Below, piece after piece: positions 32,060 through 61,760 of a stretch of DNA of 64,000 nucleotides. Position 1 is the stretch's first letter, and every line of letters starts with the position of its first letter. A model generated the notes under the pieces. It did no database searches. It was not told the DNA's origin and saw only the letters and a program-made list of their open reading frames with translations. Position numbers and translations under genes: made by a program. Source of the DNA: Halorhabdus tiamatea SARL4B (GTDB lineage: Archaea > Halobacteriota > Halobacteria > Halobacteriales > Haloarculaceae); the NCBI RefSeq assembly GCF_000470655.1, contig NC_021921.1, positions 1,674,001-1,738,000 on the forward strand, written 5' to 3'.

Positions 32060-32133
<74 letters not shown>

Positions 32134-32137
32134 CTAT

Positions 32138-32252
32138 TGCGACGAACGGACGTGAGGAGCTATGCGGCCAAGGGAATCGAACCCTACCAGTGGCAGCCCG
32201 CGCAGCGTAGCGAGCAGGAACCTCTGGTTCCGGTTCAATTCTCACCGGCGAC
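32138..32252 (+). repeat. Conserved post-tRNA element (copy 1)
   Basis: This sequence shares ordered blocks with the stretch after tRNA-Pro (59430-59597): GCGA.GAACGGACGTGA.GAGC, GAACCCT..CAGT.GCAGC, and CCTCTGGTTC near the end. It ends with GGTTCAATTCTCACCGGC (32232-32249), an imperfect duplicate of the tRNA-Lys T-arm and 3' end (32112-32132). Nothing is encoded here. Confidence 0.65.
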
Positions 32253-59276: not shown

Positions 59277-59351
59277 TTGTCTGTGGTTGTCTTGACTTCG
59301 CAATATTACGAACGAAACGCTTTACCTCGCGTCGTCGTAACGTGTTGGTAC

Positions 59352-59424
59352 GGGACCGTGGGGTAGCTTGGTATCCTTGCGGCCTTGGGTGCCGTTGACC
59401 GCGGTTCAAATCCGCGCGGTCCCA
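59352..59424 (+). tRNA. tRNA-Pro (anticodon TGG)
   Basis: 73 nt: acceptor GGGACCG/CGGTCCC with discriminator A, D-arm GTAGCTTGGTATC, anticodon stem GCGGC/GCCGT with loop CTTGGGT (anticodon TGG), T-arm CGCGG-TTCAAAT-CCGCG. No encoded CCA, no intron. Confidence 0.96.
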
Positions 59425-59429
59425 TGCTT

Positions 59430-59597
59430 CTGCGAGGAACGGACGTGACGAGCGAAGCATGCAATAGCGAGGATTTGAACCCTGGCAGTCGCAGCGCGAA
59501 CGGCGCGAGGTCGCGAAGCGACCTCGATTGGCCGAACGGCGAAGCCGTGAGGCAGTGAGCGACCGTCTGCCTCTGGTTCACAATCCGCGCGGTCCCA
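59430..59597 (+). repeat. Conserved post-tRNA element with duplicated tRNA 3' end (copy 2)
   Basis: It shares ordered blocks with 32138-32252 after tRNA-Lys (GCGAGGAACGGACGTGACGA, GAACCCTGGCAGTCGCAGC, CCTCTGGTTC). It ends at 59575-59597 with GGTTCACAATCCGCGCGG plus TCCCA, which repeats the last 22 nt of tRNA-Pro (59403-59424) with one extra C. This has the appearance of an attachment-site duplication. Confidence 0.7.
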
Positions 59598-59974
59598 CTG
59601 CCACCTTTTTACTGCGAAGGGTTTCCTCGGTCGCCTTCGGCGACCTGCGGGAACCCCTCTTGCAAAAAGCTGGGCCAAAAACAGCTCGGCGCTCATTTCA
59701 TTCGCGCCGAGTGAAACGCGCTCGCTTCGCTCGCGCGCATCCTCACTCAAAACTAATCCAGTCGTCGACGCCCTCGTCGCGAGCGATACCCTTCACTGAC
59801 CGGGCGTGTGGGATCGAAGCGTTCCCCTCCGAGAAGTCGATCGCGTCTTTCTACGCTTCGGAGAGTCCGATTTGTCCGGCCGATGCCAGCGACGGCTTCG
59901 AGAGTTGGCTCGATCAGGGGACCGGAGCCATCGTCTTTCTGCCGGCTGAGTGATCGGCGAAACACCTACAACCC
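59598..59974. other. 377-bp region, possible gene remnant only
   Basis: No complete gene is recognised. A plus-strand frame ending at 59953 has an acidic tail (FESWLDQGTGAIVFLPAE) that looks protein-like but has no convincing start or family. It may be the end of a decayed island gene. Confidence 0.35.
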
Positions 59975-59993
59975 TGTATAATTGAATTATACA
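59975..59993. promoter_or_regulatory. 19-bp palindrome, probable VapBC operator
   Basis: TGTATAATTGAATTATACA is a perfect palindrome with a central G, ending one base before the ATG of the antitoxin gene (59995). VapB antitoxins typically repress their own operon by binding such sites over the promoter. Confidence 0.7.
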
Positions 59994-59994
59994 T

Positions 59995-60198
59995 ATGGGA
60001 AGCACAATCCGCGTTTCCGACAACACGAAAGAGCTTCTCAACCGGCTCAAGCAGGAGGACGAAACGTACGATGAGTTGCTCTCGCGACTCGCCCGCGAAA
60101 GCGATACGATGAATCCTGGCGTCTGGGACGAAGACCAGGTAGACGCCGCTCGTGAGGTTCTCAAGCAGTCCCGGAAGAGTTTCGAGCCTCACCGATGA
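59995..60198 (+). CDS. vapB: VapB-type antitoxin
   Basis: 67 residues: MGSTIRVSDNTKELLNRLKQ, EDETYDELLSRLARE, ending RKSFEPHR. The N-terminal strand-helix pattern is a ribbon-helix-helix/AbrB-like DNA-binding start typical of archaeal VapB (UPF0330-like) antitoxins; the C-terminus would wrap the toxin. It overlaps the toxin gene by ATGA (60195-60198) and sits under a palindromic operator. Confidence 0.85.
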   Translation: MGSTIRVSDNTKELLNRLKQEDETYDELLSRLARESDTMNPGVWDEDQVDAAREVLKQSRKSFEPHR

Positions 60199-60590
60199 GT
60201 TTTCTCGATACGTCCGTCATCATCGACTACTTGGGCGATGTCGACGACGTAGTCGCGTTCGTTGACGATCAGGATACACTTCTTACCTCGAGTATCTGCG
60301 TCTTCGAAGTGCTCGTCGGCGAGGTCCACGCGCCCGGTCCGACCGACATCTACCAGCGACGCCAGGACTTCGGCCGCGTGCAGGCCATAGAGTTCACCGA
60401 GACTGTCGCGATCGAGGCGGTGCGATTGCAACAGAAGATGATGGCAGACGGAGTACAACTGTCCCCCCGGGATATGATGATCGCTGCAACGGCACGCTCG
60501 ACGGGAGCCGAGTTGGTCGTCGCCGATTCGGACTTCCATGTCGATCCCCTCCGGGAGTACATGAACGTCCGCGATTTGCGCTCGGAGTAG
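60195..60590 (+). CDS. vapC: VapC toxin, PIN-domain ribonuclease
   Basis: 131 residues. PIN acidic residues: D5 in MSFLDTSVIIDYL, E38 region ICVFEVLVGE, D95 region SPRDMMIAATARS and the final ADSDFHVDP. Normal length for VapC. It would cleave RNA, often tRNA or rRNA, when released by VapB. All key acidic positions look intact. Confidence 0.88.
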   Translation: MSFLDTSVIIDYLGDVDDVVAFVDDQDTLLTSSICVFEVLVGEVHAPGPTDIYQRRQDFGRVQAIEFTETVAIEAVRLQQKMMADGVQLSPRDMMIAATARSTGAELVVADSDFHVDPLREYMNVRDLRSE

Positions 60591-60620
60591 TGTCCGGTTC
60601 TCGGCACATTACCGGACGGA

Positions 60621-60812
60621 ATGAACCTCGACGACGGAAAGACAGTCTGGCCGTCTCAGGAAGAAGTCGACCGTCTCCTCGACGCCGTCGACGACGCTGT
60701 GACAGGCGTCGCGATGTGCCTCGGCGTGCGGTGTGGCCTCCGGACCGAGGAGATCGTCTTCCTCCTCATGGTCGTCGCCCTCTTGTTGGTAGCGCGCCCG
60801 GGATTCCGATAG
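60621..60812 (+). pseudogene. Tyrosine recombinase (integrase) remnant
   Basis: The frame reads VWPSQEEVDRLLDAVDDAVT then AMCLGVRCGLRTEEIVFLLM. W.SQEEVDRLLDAVDD...LG.RCGLR..EI is the start of the phage-integrase catalytic core, including the first catalytic Arg region (CGLR). The rest of the catalytic domain is missing, so this is a truncated relic. It lies near tRNA-Pro with a duplicated 3' end, fitting a lost integrative element. Confidence 0.65.
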
Positions 60813-60900
60813 AACCCGTCGCCGTCCGCCGAGTGGATCGGGCAGTCTCACAACCGAGTGGCGGGGAATGGCGGCGTAACACTCTTAGACCCATATATCC

Positions 60901-60910
60901 CAATATATTG
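60901..60910. promoter_or_regulatory. palindrome at the second antitoxin start, probable operator
   Basis: CAATATATTG is a perfect 10-bp palindrome ending one base before ATG 60912, within an AT-rich CATATATCCCAATATATTG context that also supplies a TATA box. Placement mirrors the operator at 59975-59993. Confidence 0.5.
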
Positions 60911-60911
60911 T

Positions 60912-61160
60912 ATGGTCAAAACCATTCGCGTTTCCGAAGAGTACCACGAGTGGCTCAGCGCCCACAAGAAAAGCGACGAGACGATGGAAGAGACGTTGCG
61001 CCGGATGACGCGCGGCCCGCACCCGAGCGACGTTGCCGGTCTCCTGACCGAGGACGAAGCCGAGGACGCCAAAGCGGCGGTGGATCGCCTCCGCGGGCGT
61101 GACCGCGGCCGCCTCGAGGCCGCCCGTAGTGCCTTCGAACACGAGGACACCGGCGAATGA
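60912..61160 (+). CDS. VapB-type antitoxin (second pair)
   Basis: 82 residues: MVKTIRVSEEYHEWLSAHKK, SDETMEETLRRMTRGPHPSD, then VAGLLTEDEAEDAKAAVDRL. The start resembles the first antitoxin (TIRVS) with the same DNA-binding arrangement, followed by a longer helical tail. Overlaps the PIN toxin by ATGA (61157-61160). Confidence 0.82.
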   Translation: MVKTIRVSEEYHEWLSAHKKSDETMEETLRRMTRGPHPSDVAGLLTEDEAEDAKAAVDRLRGRDRGRLEAARSAFEHEDTGE

Positions 61161-61552
61161 TCATCGATTCCTCGTATCTCTTCGATCTGATGGCGGAGGA
61201 CCCGGCTGCGTTTTCGAAGGGCGCGGAACTCGTCGAGAAGGGTGAAATGCAGTGGTTGCCGACCCCCGTCGTCGCCGAAGCCTACTACTGCGTCGGGACG
61301 GTTCGTAGCGATACCACCGAGCAAGCGGTTCGCAATCGACTCCTCGGATACCCACGGATCGATGTCGACGAAGAGATCGCGCGAAAAGCCGGCGAGTTGC
61401 TCGCGGCGGCAGACGACCACGTGGGTGGGGACGCCGGCGTCGGCCCGAACGACGCGTACATCGCCGCGATGGCGGACGTCCTCGACGACGCAGTCCTGAC
61501 GGACAACGTCGAAGACTTCGAGGCGTTGGGTGTGCCAGTCGAAACCTACTGA
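61157..61552 (+). CDS. PIN-domain toxin (VapC-like, second pair)
   Basis: 131 residues: D4 in MIIDSSYLFDLM, E41 in PVVAEAYYCVG, D99-type in VGPNDAYIAAMA, and D115-type in VLTDNVEDFEALGV. The acidic quartet is intact. This pair is distantly related to the one at 59995-60590, so it is more likely a second acquisition than a recent duplication. Confidence 0.86.
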   Translation: MIIDSSYLFDLMAEDPAAFSKGAELVEKGEMQWLPTPVVAEAYYCVGTVRSDTTEQAVRNRLLGYPRIDVDEEIARKAGELLAAADDHVGGDAGVGPNDAYIAAMADVLDDAVLTDNVEDFEALGVPVETY

Positions 61553-61760
61553 CCCGGTGTGGGCGGCGATCGGAGATCCCTGGCCGCAGGCGAACAGCGA
61601 TCAAAGACAGAGCTCAGCATCCGATTAGTGAAATTCCCGGGACAAAACGAACCTCGACCACTACCCGCGCAAACCCAAACGATAGGTGAGACGGGCACCG
61701 ACATCTCGGTATGAGAAGCGACGTGAACCGGGGCGATCGACCGACCGACGACAGCGAGCC

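What the first reader, a model, noticed from the sequence alone, without database searches (positions are those of the whole stretch)
59352..61552. Relic integrative island at tRNA-Pro carrying two toxin-antitoxin pairs
The last 22 nt of tRNA-Pro are repeated 170 bp downstream (59575-59597, one inserted base), as an att duplication would be. A tyrosine-recombinase fragment lies at 60621-60812, flanked by two VapBC-type pairs. Together they look like what remains after loss of an integrated element, with the toxin-antitoxin genes retained.
Basis: partly seen in the sequence, partly recalled or inferred. Interest (0 to 1): 0.5.

Follow-up and report, generated by a model that had tools for sequence, protein, structure and literature searches.

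The report
Hairpin mini-elements inserted behind tRNA genes
The repeat behind this tRNA is not the edge of a lost gene island but one of many tiny, gene-less, hairpin-forming DNA pieces that salt-loving archaea gain and lose exactly at the ends of most of their tRNA genes, each carrying copies of its own tRNA's end.

Summary
The tRNA-Pro 3'-end duplication (59575-59597) is real, but it closes a 173-bp gene-less module (59425-59597), not a relic island. The module holds a hairpin (H1), an inverted copy of the tRNA's T-arm, a variable palindromic stem, and the direct copy. Modules follow most tRNAs of this genome (direct copy at 31 of 44, inverted at 27; shuffles 26 and 10 of 2580), fitted to their own tRNA. 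Hairpin patterns recur across the haloarchaeal class; one pattern found none in 241 other genomes of the phylum. Congeners show precise occupied/empty sites with shared flanks; up to three class-I modules stand in a row; 12 module pairs are >=98% identical between species. Hairpin tips are GNA triloops, a DNA-stabilising motif, in 46 of 91 units (1 of 85 shuffled). Best reading: non-autonomous integrative mini-elements acting through folded single-stranded DNA, probably moved by a tyrosine recombinase. Precise gain/loss is shown; enzyme and strand state are inferred. The two VapBC pairs are real but separate: one is shared with congener G005; the other lies with a weak integrase-like fragment on a 1,026-bp segment absent there.

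The parts
59352..59424 (+). tRNA-Pro (anticodon TGG): host gene and target site
   Evidence: ARAGORN; Rfam RF00005 55 bits
59425..59597 (+). tRNA-anchored mini-element (module), 173 bp, gene-less, from the base after the tRNA to the end of the direct copy
   Evidence: segmentation, coordinates; G006 lacks a module here and G005 has one before the same flank as G006
59428..59459 (+). left hairpin H1; the stretch before the inverted arm is ~93% identical to that of a tRNA-Met module in G006
   Evidence: H1 sharing
59469..59481 (+). inverted copy of the tRNA-Pro T-arm (GGATTTGAACC within it)
59484..59492 (+). left half of second paired box (L''-like)
   Evidence: covariation of this box over 68 unique cores
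59493..59560 (+). variable palindromic tip of hairpin H2
59561..59571 (+). right half of second paired box (L'-like)
59575..59597 (+). direct copy of the tRNA-Pro 3' end with one extra C in the T-loop
32060..32134 (+). tRNA-Lys (anticodon TTT), second host gene in the window
32135..32249 (+). second module of the family, decayed at its right end: H1 32135-32164, inverted T-arm 32172-32184, direct copy 32232-32249
59995..60590 (+). VapBC pair 1 (VapB 59995-60198, VapC/PIN 60195-60590); outside the module, shared with G005
60623..60635 (+). left copy of a 13-bp imperfect direct repeat bounding the 1,026-bp indel
60621..60812 (+). weak tyrosine-integrase-like fragment (63 aa)
60912..61552 (+). 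VapBC pair 2 (VapB-like 60912-61160, PIN 61157-61552); absent from the same place in G005
61649..61661 (+). right copy of the 13-bp imperfect direct repeat

Best explanation
[quoted passage not shown] Each unit carries one copy of its tRNA's 3' end, so the tRNA stays intact and a copy is left at the unit's far end. New units can be added, giving arrays. The unit also carries an inverted copy of that tRNA's T-arm. On a single strand (or in a small excised circle) the inverted copy pairs with the direct copy and closes a hairpin of paired arm, unpaired spacer, second paired box and variable tip, beside a second hairpin H1. I propose that this folded DNA, rather than linear sequence, is what a recombinase handles, as an integron integrase handles a folded attC site. 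Pairing with the unit's own tRNA-end copy would tie each unit to one tRNA. A trans-acting tyrosine recombinase is the likeliest enzyme: either the mostly single-copy chromosomal one found in every haloarchaeal genome tested, or the integrases of islands that use the same tRNA ends. SHOWN: the family, the tRNA-specific arms, precise occupied/empty sites, the arrays, the paired architecture, the class-wide spread. INFERRED: single-stranded substrate, attC-like chemistry, the enzyme.
For: Family: direct copy behind 31 of 44, 30 of 42 and 24 of 43 tRNAs of three congeners, inverted copy behind 27, 25 and 22; shuffled control 26 and 10 of 2580. tRNA-specific arms: at tRNAs with a non-consensus T-loop the inverted copy is closer to its own tRNA in 32 of 33 modules found by a generic motif (1 closer to consensus; 20 further modules had no motif hit). 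Precise sites: 48 of 134 ortholog pairs share the flank after the array, 23 of them differ in module number, over 16 tRNA types. tRNA-Ile: G000, G001 and G002 empty, G005 occupied, similar flank, so a gain in G005 is the simplest reading; G003, G004 and G006 have other flanks and do not bear on it. Up to 3 class-I units in a row. Recent spread: 12 module pairs >=98% identical across species (three of them one Gly module in three genomes; three are not class I by eye) where aligned neighbouring DNA is 77-92%. Folded DNA: GNA triloop at the tip of 46 of 91 units against 1 of 85 shuffled, no GNRA, no TTCG; GNA in 14 of 17 strong module hairpins against 0 of 30 elsewhere in the window. GNA loops on at least two G-C pairs are described as extraordinarily stable mini-hairpin DNA (passages of PMC4686876). 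Second box covaries: 15 of 68 perfect against a null mean of 2.9, maximum 12. Circular DNA fold: median z -4.2, arms paired in 64 of 72. Polarity: 0 reversed. Enzyme candidate in 145 of 145 class genomes; [quoted passage not shown]
Against: No excised circle, no enzyme and no strand state was observed. No autonomous partner with an integrase between the same ends was found, and no module was recognised in the 41 viral stretches matched or in phage and plasmid records, with only one T-loop pattern or one module as query. Gain and loss could partly be ordinary recombination or slippage between 22-bp repeats; only one gain (tRNA-Ile) was polarised. The window module scores z -4.3 but the G005 Pro module only -1.7, and 10 of 72 modules have z of -2 or higher. 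Modules rarely move between different tRNAs: 0 of 91 cores and 3 of 91 H1 are shared at >=90% with a tRNA for another amino acid, and those 3 join tRNA-Met and tRNA-Pro(tgg), whose 3' ends are nearly identical. How arms came to fit some 36 tRNA types is unexplained. 29 of 120 segmented modules are not of this type. The extra T-loop base, the nearest thing to an attC extrahelical base, is in only 14 of 79 units and on the opposite arm.
Confidence: 0.5

Rival explanations
1. The modules are ordinary att-flanked satellites or scars of large islands: island integrases act on the tRNA acceptor end, and the hairpins are incidental.
For: Islands use the same tRNA ends: a ~62-kb island at tRNA-Met with tyrosine-recombinase genes 5-9 kb inside its far end. 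Three of the haloarchaeal modules without a tRNA beside them (L208, L235, L239) follow a partial tRNA-end copy and have an integrase match ending only 42-115 bp before the inverted arm. In G006 the left-end sequence of that island follows a module's direct copy.
Against: Neither end of the tRNA-Met island has a direct or inverted copy above the shuffle level within 350 bp. The hairpin pattern recurs across the class. PF00589 matches range from 2 (G005) to 13 (G001) in congeners, yet G005 has as many class-I units as the others read (30 against 31 and 30).
Confidence: 0.2
2. IS200/IS605-like (PATE) elements: a Y1 HUH transposase cuts single strands, and the inverted T-arm is a long guide pairing with the cleavage site, so target choice is set by base pairing.
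For: Two hairpins near the ends, no terminal inverted repeats, a guide-like segment 5' of the right hairpin that pairs 3' of it (by reading; IS608 logic recalled). PATEs are described in Haloquadratum (passages of PMC3119063).
Against: No Y1_Tnp match in G003 and G005 although both have modules; the other 5 of 7 congeners have 2-4. The shared segment is about 22 nt of tRNA, not the 4-6 nt target described for IS605 types.
Confidence: 0.12
3. No dedicated enzyme: modules are spread by homologous recombination of tRNA-plus-module segments after DNA uptake and lost by deletion between the direct repeats.
For: Modules stay with one tRNA, and near-identical ones occur in different species. Repeat-mediated deletions, two of them at partial tRNA duplications tied to prophage integration, are described in Haloquadratum (passages of PMC3119063).
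Against: Does not explain the fixed polarity, the GNA tips, the covarying second box or the match of the inverted arm to each tRNA. At tRNA-Ile the flank behind the G005 module continues as in empty congeners; I did not test exchange of markers farther out.
Confidence: 0.2
4. RNA-level function: the module is a structured 3' trailer of the tRNA transcript, regulating tRNA maturation or termination, and selected as RNA.
For: Strand and nearness to the tRNA (73 of 84 loci within 700 bp); stems covary. Two RNA 3' ends are reported downstream of tRNA-Pro in Haloferax volcanii (passages of PMC7237163); whether a module stands there was not checked.
Against: Presence/absence at the same tRNA between close relatives, 7 tRNA types with neither copy in three genomes, no GNRA or TTCG RNA loops but GNA DNA loops, no Rfam family besides tRNA at its gathering score.
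Confidence: 0.08

Closest known systems
Integron attC sites and cassette arrays
   Same: Folded hairpin with two paired boxes separated by an unpaired spacer and a variable tip; fixed orientation; tandem arrays behind an anchor site (attC features from passages of PMC2727003)
   Different: No genes in the units, no integron integrase or attI identified, arms are the host tRNA's T-arm instead of attC R boxes, many anchors (tRNAs) instead of one
Genomic islands and proviruses integrated at tRNA 3' ends by archaeal tyrosine integrases (e.g. SNJ2 family; passages of PMC8371274)
   Same: Target and direct copy of the tRNA end; tRNA kept intact
   Different: About 100-240 bp, no integrase, inverted T-arm and hairpins absent from the ends of the one island examined
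IS200/IS605-derived PATEs of haloarchaea (passages of PMC3119063)
   Same: Short, non-coding, near-terminal palindromes, no terminal inverted repeats
   Different: Target is a tRNA end of about 22 nt; Y1 enzyme absent from two congeners that have modules
MITEs
   Same: Small non-autonomous repeats with presence/absence variation
   Different: No terminal inverted repeats or transposase-type target duplication seen; the ends are made of the target tRNA's own sequence

Membership tests
tRNA-integrated genomic island (tyrosine integrase) | Direct repeat of the tRNA 3' end at both ends | tested here: met
   59403-59424 and 59575-59597
tRNA-integrated genomic island (tyrosine integrase) | Integrase gene and cargo between the repeats | tested here: not met
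   173 bp; the one frame tested that runs through its right end (59528-59950) has no Pfam hit; integrase-like fragment and TA pairs lie outside
Integron attC cassette | Hairpin with R''-spacer-L''-tip-L'-spacer-R' arrangement | tested here: met
   folds (64 of 72 with arms paired), covarying second box; definition read in passages
Integron attC cassette | R box consensus GTTRRRY / RYYYAAC (recalled; RYYYAAC not found in the paper searched) | tested here: not met
   By reading: the arms are tRNA T-arm sequence (GTTCAAATCC and variants)
Integron attC cassette | Extrahelical bases on the R''-L'' arm that set the strand | tested here: inconclusive
   14 of 79 direct copies have an extra or changed T-loop base, but on the R' side; no strand test possible
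Integron attC cassette | Integron integrase and attI next to the array | tested here: inconclusive
Integron attC cassette | Units carry genes | tested here: not met
   Too short for ordinary genes: 107-237 bp among 79 units measured
IS200/IS605 PATE | Y1 transposase available in the genome | tested here: not met
   0 matches in G003 and G005, 2 of 7 genomes, both with modules; present in 5 of 7
IS200/IS605 PATE | Short (4-6 nt) target, no longer duplication | tested here: not met
   About 22-nt tRNA-end copy
MITE | Terminal inverted repeats and target-site duplication by a transposase | tested here: not met
   By reading: unit ends differ between modules; the repeat is the tRNA end
Known RNA family | Match to an Rfam model | tested here: not met
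   Only the tRNA model reaches its gathering score in window 59300-59700
VapBC toxin-antitoxin pairs | RHH/VapB-type antitoxin followed by PIN toxin, overlapping | tested here: met
   (antitoxin 2 below Pfam's cut-off), coordinates

The most novel reading that the evidence does not exclude
Haloarchaea host a class-wide recombination system in which gene-less DNA cassettes fold as single strands into hairpins whose arms are copies of the host tRNA's own T-arm, so that base pairing with one particular tRNA end addresses each cassette to that tRNA. It would be an attC-like system with tRNA genes as dozens of parallel attachment sites, possibly served by the universal chromosomal tyrosine recombinase.
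Probability: 0.25. Interest if true: 0.9.

Novelty: new variant of a known kind. Interest (0 to 1): 0.7.

Why it matters
tRNA 3' ends are preferred docking sites for archaeal mobile DNA (passages of PMC8371274). In the three genomes read, most of them are occupied by a class of tiny elements, not found described in my searches, that add spare tRNA ends (one of which marks an island boundary in G006) and that turn over between close relatives. If they recombine as folded single strands, that would be integron-like chemistry at archaeal tRNA genes with host-templated target choice, directly testable in Haloferax-type laboratory strains. It also warns that a tRNA-end repeat in a haloarchaeal genome is not by itself evidence of a genomic island.

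Tried and rejected
Relic island bounded at tRNA-Pro: rejected, no further copy of the Pro end in the window, and module and TA genes vary independently. A match to the module's direct copy 74 kb downstream looked like a Pro att site but proved to be part of a tRNA-Met module stranded by a ~62-kb island.

Viral origin: an IMG/VR scan with the hairpin pattern gave 41 stretches; reading the matches showed no module. Phages and plasmids gave no match to the window module. Rfam gave no family at its gathering score beyond tRNA.

Y1 transposase as the required resident enzyme: weakened. Frequent movement between tRNAs: not seen. Inversion of H2: 0 reversed. I planned a covariance model and did not build one, because the pattern and pairing tests were enough.

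Weaknesses of my own tests: the '39 of 39' own-tRNA match is biased, because units were chosen by similarity to their own tRNA; the 32 of 33 is fairer (20 of 53 modules dropped for want of the motif). Segmentation required at most 1 mismatch in the last 10 nt, so decayed modules are missed (for instance the window's Lys module counts as none). The control shuffles keep base composition only. In one search, three ARAGORN rows judged false (Arg-tcg in L101 and L132, Gln-ctg in L120) were dropped, as would be rows without a T-loop at the expected place. The flank threshold of 0.75 is passed by 6 of 500 random pairs. Array counts include class-II and doubtful short segments (29 of 120 units are not class I). 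Units sharing an ancestor are counted separately. Class and phylum are those of the tool's unnamed grouping; I call the class Halobacteria from the record titles.

Literature: full-text searches listed no paper that, from title and start of abstract, describes such modules (listed 20 of 45, 13 of 13, 10 of 27, 12 of 75, 12 of 15, 6 of 6 and 10 of 16). Of papers opened I saw passages only. The library lacks most subscription journals.

Full report
WHAT IS THERE. tRNA-Pro(TGG) lies at 59352-59424 and its last 22 nt recur at 59575-59597 with one inserted C. Between them are a hairpin at 59428-59459, an inverted copy of the same T-arm at 59469-59481 and, between the inverted and the direct copy, a long palindromic stem. 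The window's other tRNA, tRNA-Lys at 32060-32134, is followed by the same build (32135-32249). A search of the own genome with the tRNA and its downstream DNA gave 26 places at E <= 1, several of which lie at other tRNAs. I therefore read the DNA behind the tRNA genes of the own genome and of two congeners, G005 and G006.

A GENOME-WIDE FAMILY. A direct copy of the tRNA's own 3' end lies within 350 bp downstream at 31 of 44, 30 of 42 and 24 of 43 tRNAs of G000, G005 and G006, an inverted T-arm copy at 27, 25 and 22, both at 25, 24 and 19. Shuffled downstream DNA exceeds the thresholds in 26 and 10 of 2580 cases. Seven tRNA types have neither in any of the three; 23 have one or the other in all; 13 vary. 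By the stricter segmentation a tRNA has 0 to 4 segments, with up to 3 class-I units in a row. Of 120 segments cut out in the three genomes, 91 have an inverted arm with at most 2 mismatches (class I: 31, 30, 30). The rest include a second type inserted in the T-stem, without the inverted T-arm.

SPREAD. One T-loop version of the hairpin pattern occurs in 97 of 145 genomes of the own class (46 of 58 genera), the reversed control pattern in none. A second version occurs in 29 of 294 genomes of the phylum, all 29 among the 53 genomes of the own class drawn and none among the 241 others; at least one of the 29 (locus L264) looks like chance. A scan of the 84,980-species collection with one core motif gave 55 stretches, 51 from Halobacteria by their titles and 4 from bacteria. 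Of 84 loci from these two searches, 73 have the motif within 700 bp downstream of a tRNA on the same strand. Of the 11 others, 4 are the bacteria and L264 is the chance match; L196 and L207 look as if the tRNA is cut by the end of the stored stretch; L208, L235 and L239 are modules behind a partial tRNA end and an integrase gene; L273 is unclear.

PRECISE AND RECENT. In 48 of 134 ortholog pairs the flank behind the array is shared, and in 23 of these the number of modules differs, over 16 tRNA types (random flank pairs pass in 6 of 500). Examples: tRNA-Pro(tgg), G005 occupied and G006 empty with the same flank; tRNA-Pro(cgg), 0, 1, 1 and 3 modules before the same flank in G001, G005, G006 and G000. 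For tRNA-Ile, G000, G001 and G002 are empty and G005 has one module before a similar flank, which makes a gain in G005 the simplest reading; G003 has another module before another flank, G004 an H1-like start without the rest, G006 another flank. Twelve module pairs are at least 98% identical between species, among them a 154-bp Gly module identical in three (three of the 12 pairs); six regions compared between G005 and G006 are 77-92% identical where they align, and window DNA is 81% and 78% identical to G005 and G006.

ARCHITECTURE. At tRNAs with an unusual T-loop the inverted arm fits its own tRNA better than the consensus in 32 of 33 modules found with a generic motif (20 of 53 had no motif). 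In tRNA-Val(cac) the T-arm itself differs between G000 and G005/G006, and the inverted copy differs with it (seen). Inside the arms a second box pairs: 15 of 68 unique cores pair perfectly over 6 bp against a null mean of 2.9 and maximum of 12, and the mean pairing of 5.04 exceeds the null maximum of 4.56. Orientation is fixed, with 0 reversed. The tip is a GNA triloop in 46 of 91 units against 1 of 85 shuffled cores, with no GNRA or TTCG tetraloop; among strong hairpins GNA loops are 14 of 17 in modules and 0 of 30 elsewhere in the window. GNA loops closed by G-C pairs are described as extraordinarily stable mini-hairpin DNA (passages of PMC4686876). Folded as circular DNA, 72 unique modules of at most 180 nt have median z -4.2; 62 lie below -2 and 53 below -3, and in 64 the inverted and direct arms pair; the window module has z -4.3, its G005 counterpart -1.7. 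The order arm, spacer, box, variable tip, box, spacer, arm is that of an integron attC site (features from passages of PMC2727003), but the arms are tRNA sequence, the units are too short for ordinary genes, and no integron integrase was identified.

LINK TO ISLANDS. The own genome has a 61.8-kb segment between tRNA-Met(cat) (end 1745725 on C2) and a partial tRNA-Met end at 1807532, behind which stands a Met module. Tyrosine-recombinase genes lie 5-9 kb inside that end. Within 350 bp of either end neither direct nor inverted copies exceed the shuffle level. In G006 the same left-end sequence follows the second of two modules, so a module's direct copy marks an island boundary there. In L208, L235 and L239 an integrase match ends 104, 42 and 115 bp before the module's inverted arm.

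ENZYME. Tyrosine-recombinase matches exist in all 7 congeners, 2 to 13 per genome. Y1 transposases are absent from G003 and G005 although both have modules. A chromosomal tyrosine recombinase (G000:C2:166028-167089) has a match at E <= 1e-60 in 145 of 145 class genomes, in most of them one. Calling it the XerA-type enzyme is my inference. [quoted passage not shown] Which enzyme moves the modules is not shown.

THE TOXIN-ANTITOXIN PAIRS. Pair 1 is shared with G005 (VapB 100%, VapC 97% aa identity). The integrase-like fragment and pair 2 lie on a 1,026-bp segment between 13-bp imperfect direct repeats (60623-60635 and 61649-61661), of which G005 has a single copy. G006 has a divergent VapBC pair in the same interval (43% and 51%), and the stretches of about 7 kb read in G001-G004 gave no hit to them at E 1e-3. 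The interval looks like a place of TA turnover next to the tRNA, not the inside of the module.

VERDICT. Observation partly confirmed, interpretation partly supported. The duplication is the end of a member of a class-wide family of tRNA-anchored hairpin mini-elements that I did not find described in seven full-text searches (listings, partly cut) of an open-access library that lacks most subscription journals.

Noticed in passing
G000:C2:1745726-1807546 (loci L282, L283, L016; outside the window): A ~62-kb integrated island at tRNA-Met(cat), bounded by about 14-15 bp of the tRNA end, with tyrosine-recombinase genes near its far end; it separated a tRNA-Met module from its tRNA.
   Followed up: partly
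window 60621-61661: 1,026-bp segment with an integrase-like fragment and a second VapBC pair, between 13-bp imperfect direct repeats, absent from G005, which has a single repeat copy.
   Followed up: yes
window 59600-59690; also behind Ile, Pro-ggg, Arg-tct and Gln-ttg tRNAs or their modules: Another recurrent stretch (CCACCTTTTTACT, a hairpin, then GCAAAAA.CTGG.CCAAAAA) follows several tRNAs or their modules; similar places recur in congeners. Function unknown.
   Followed up: no
L026, L028, L032, L050 and Val/Asp arrays in L106, L083, L129: A second class of insert in the T-stem (between AATCC and CCGC), with its own hairpins; in some an inverted acceptor instead of an inverted T-arm.
   Followed up: partly
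L023, downstream of tRNA-Lys(ctt): A palindromic MITE-like insert with inverted ends (TACTGCCGGCTGTAA ... TTACAGCCGGCAGTA) sits inside the left part of a module.
   Followed up: no
window 59753-59965, minus strand: By eye, looks like the decayed end of a small gene; similar DNA stands behind tRNA-Pro in G005 and G006.
   Followed up: no
G000:C2:166028-167089 (locus L281): A chromosomal tyrosine recombinase with a match in 145 of 145 class genomes, mostly single copy.
   Followed up: partly
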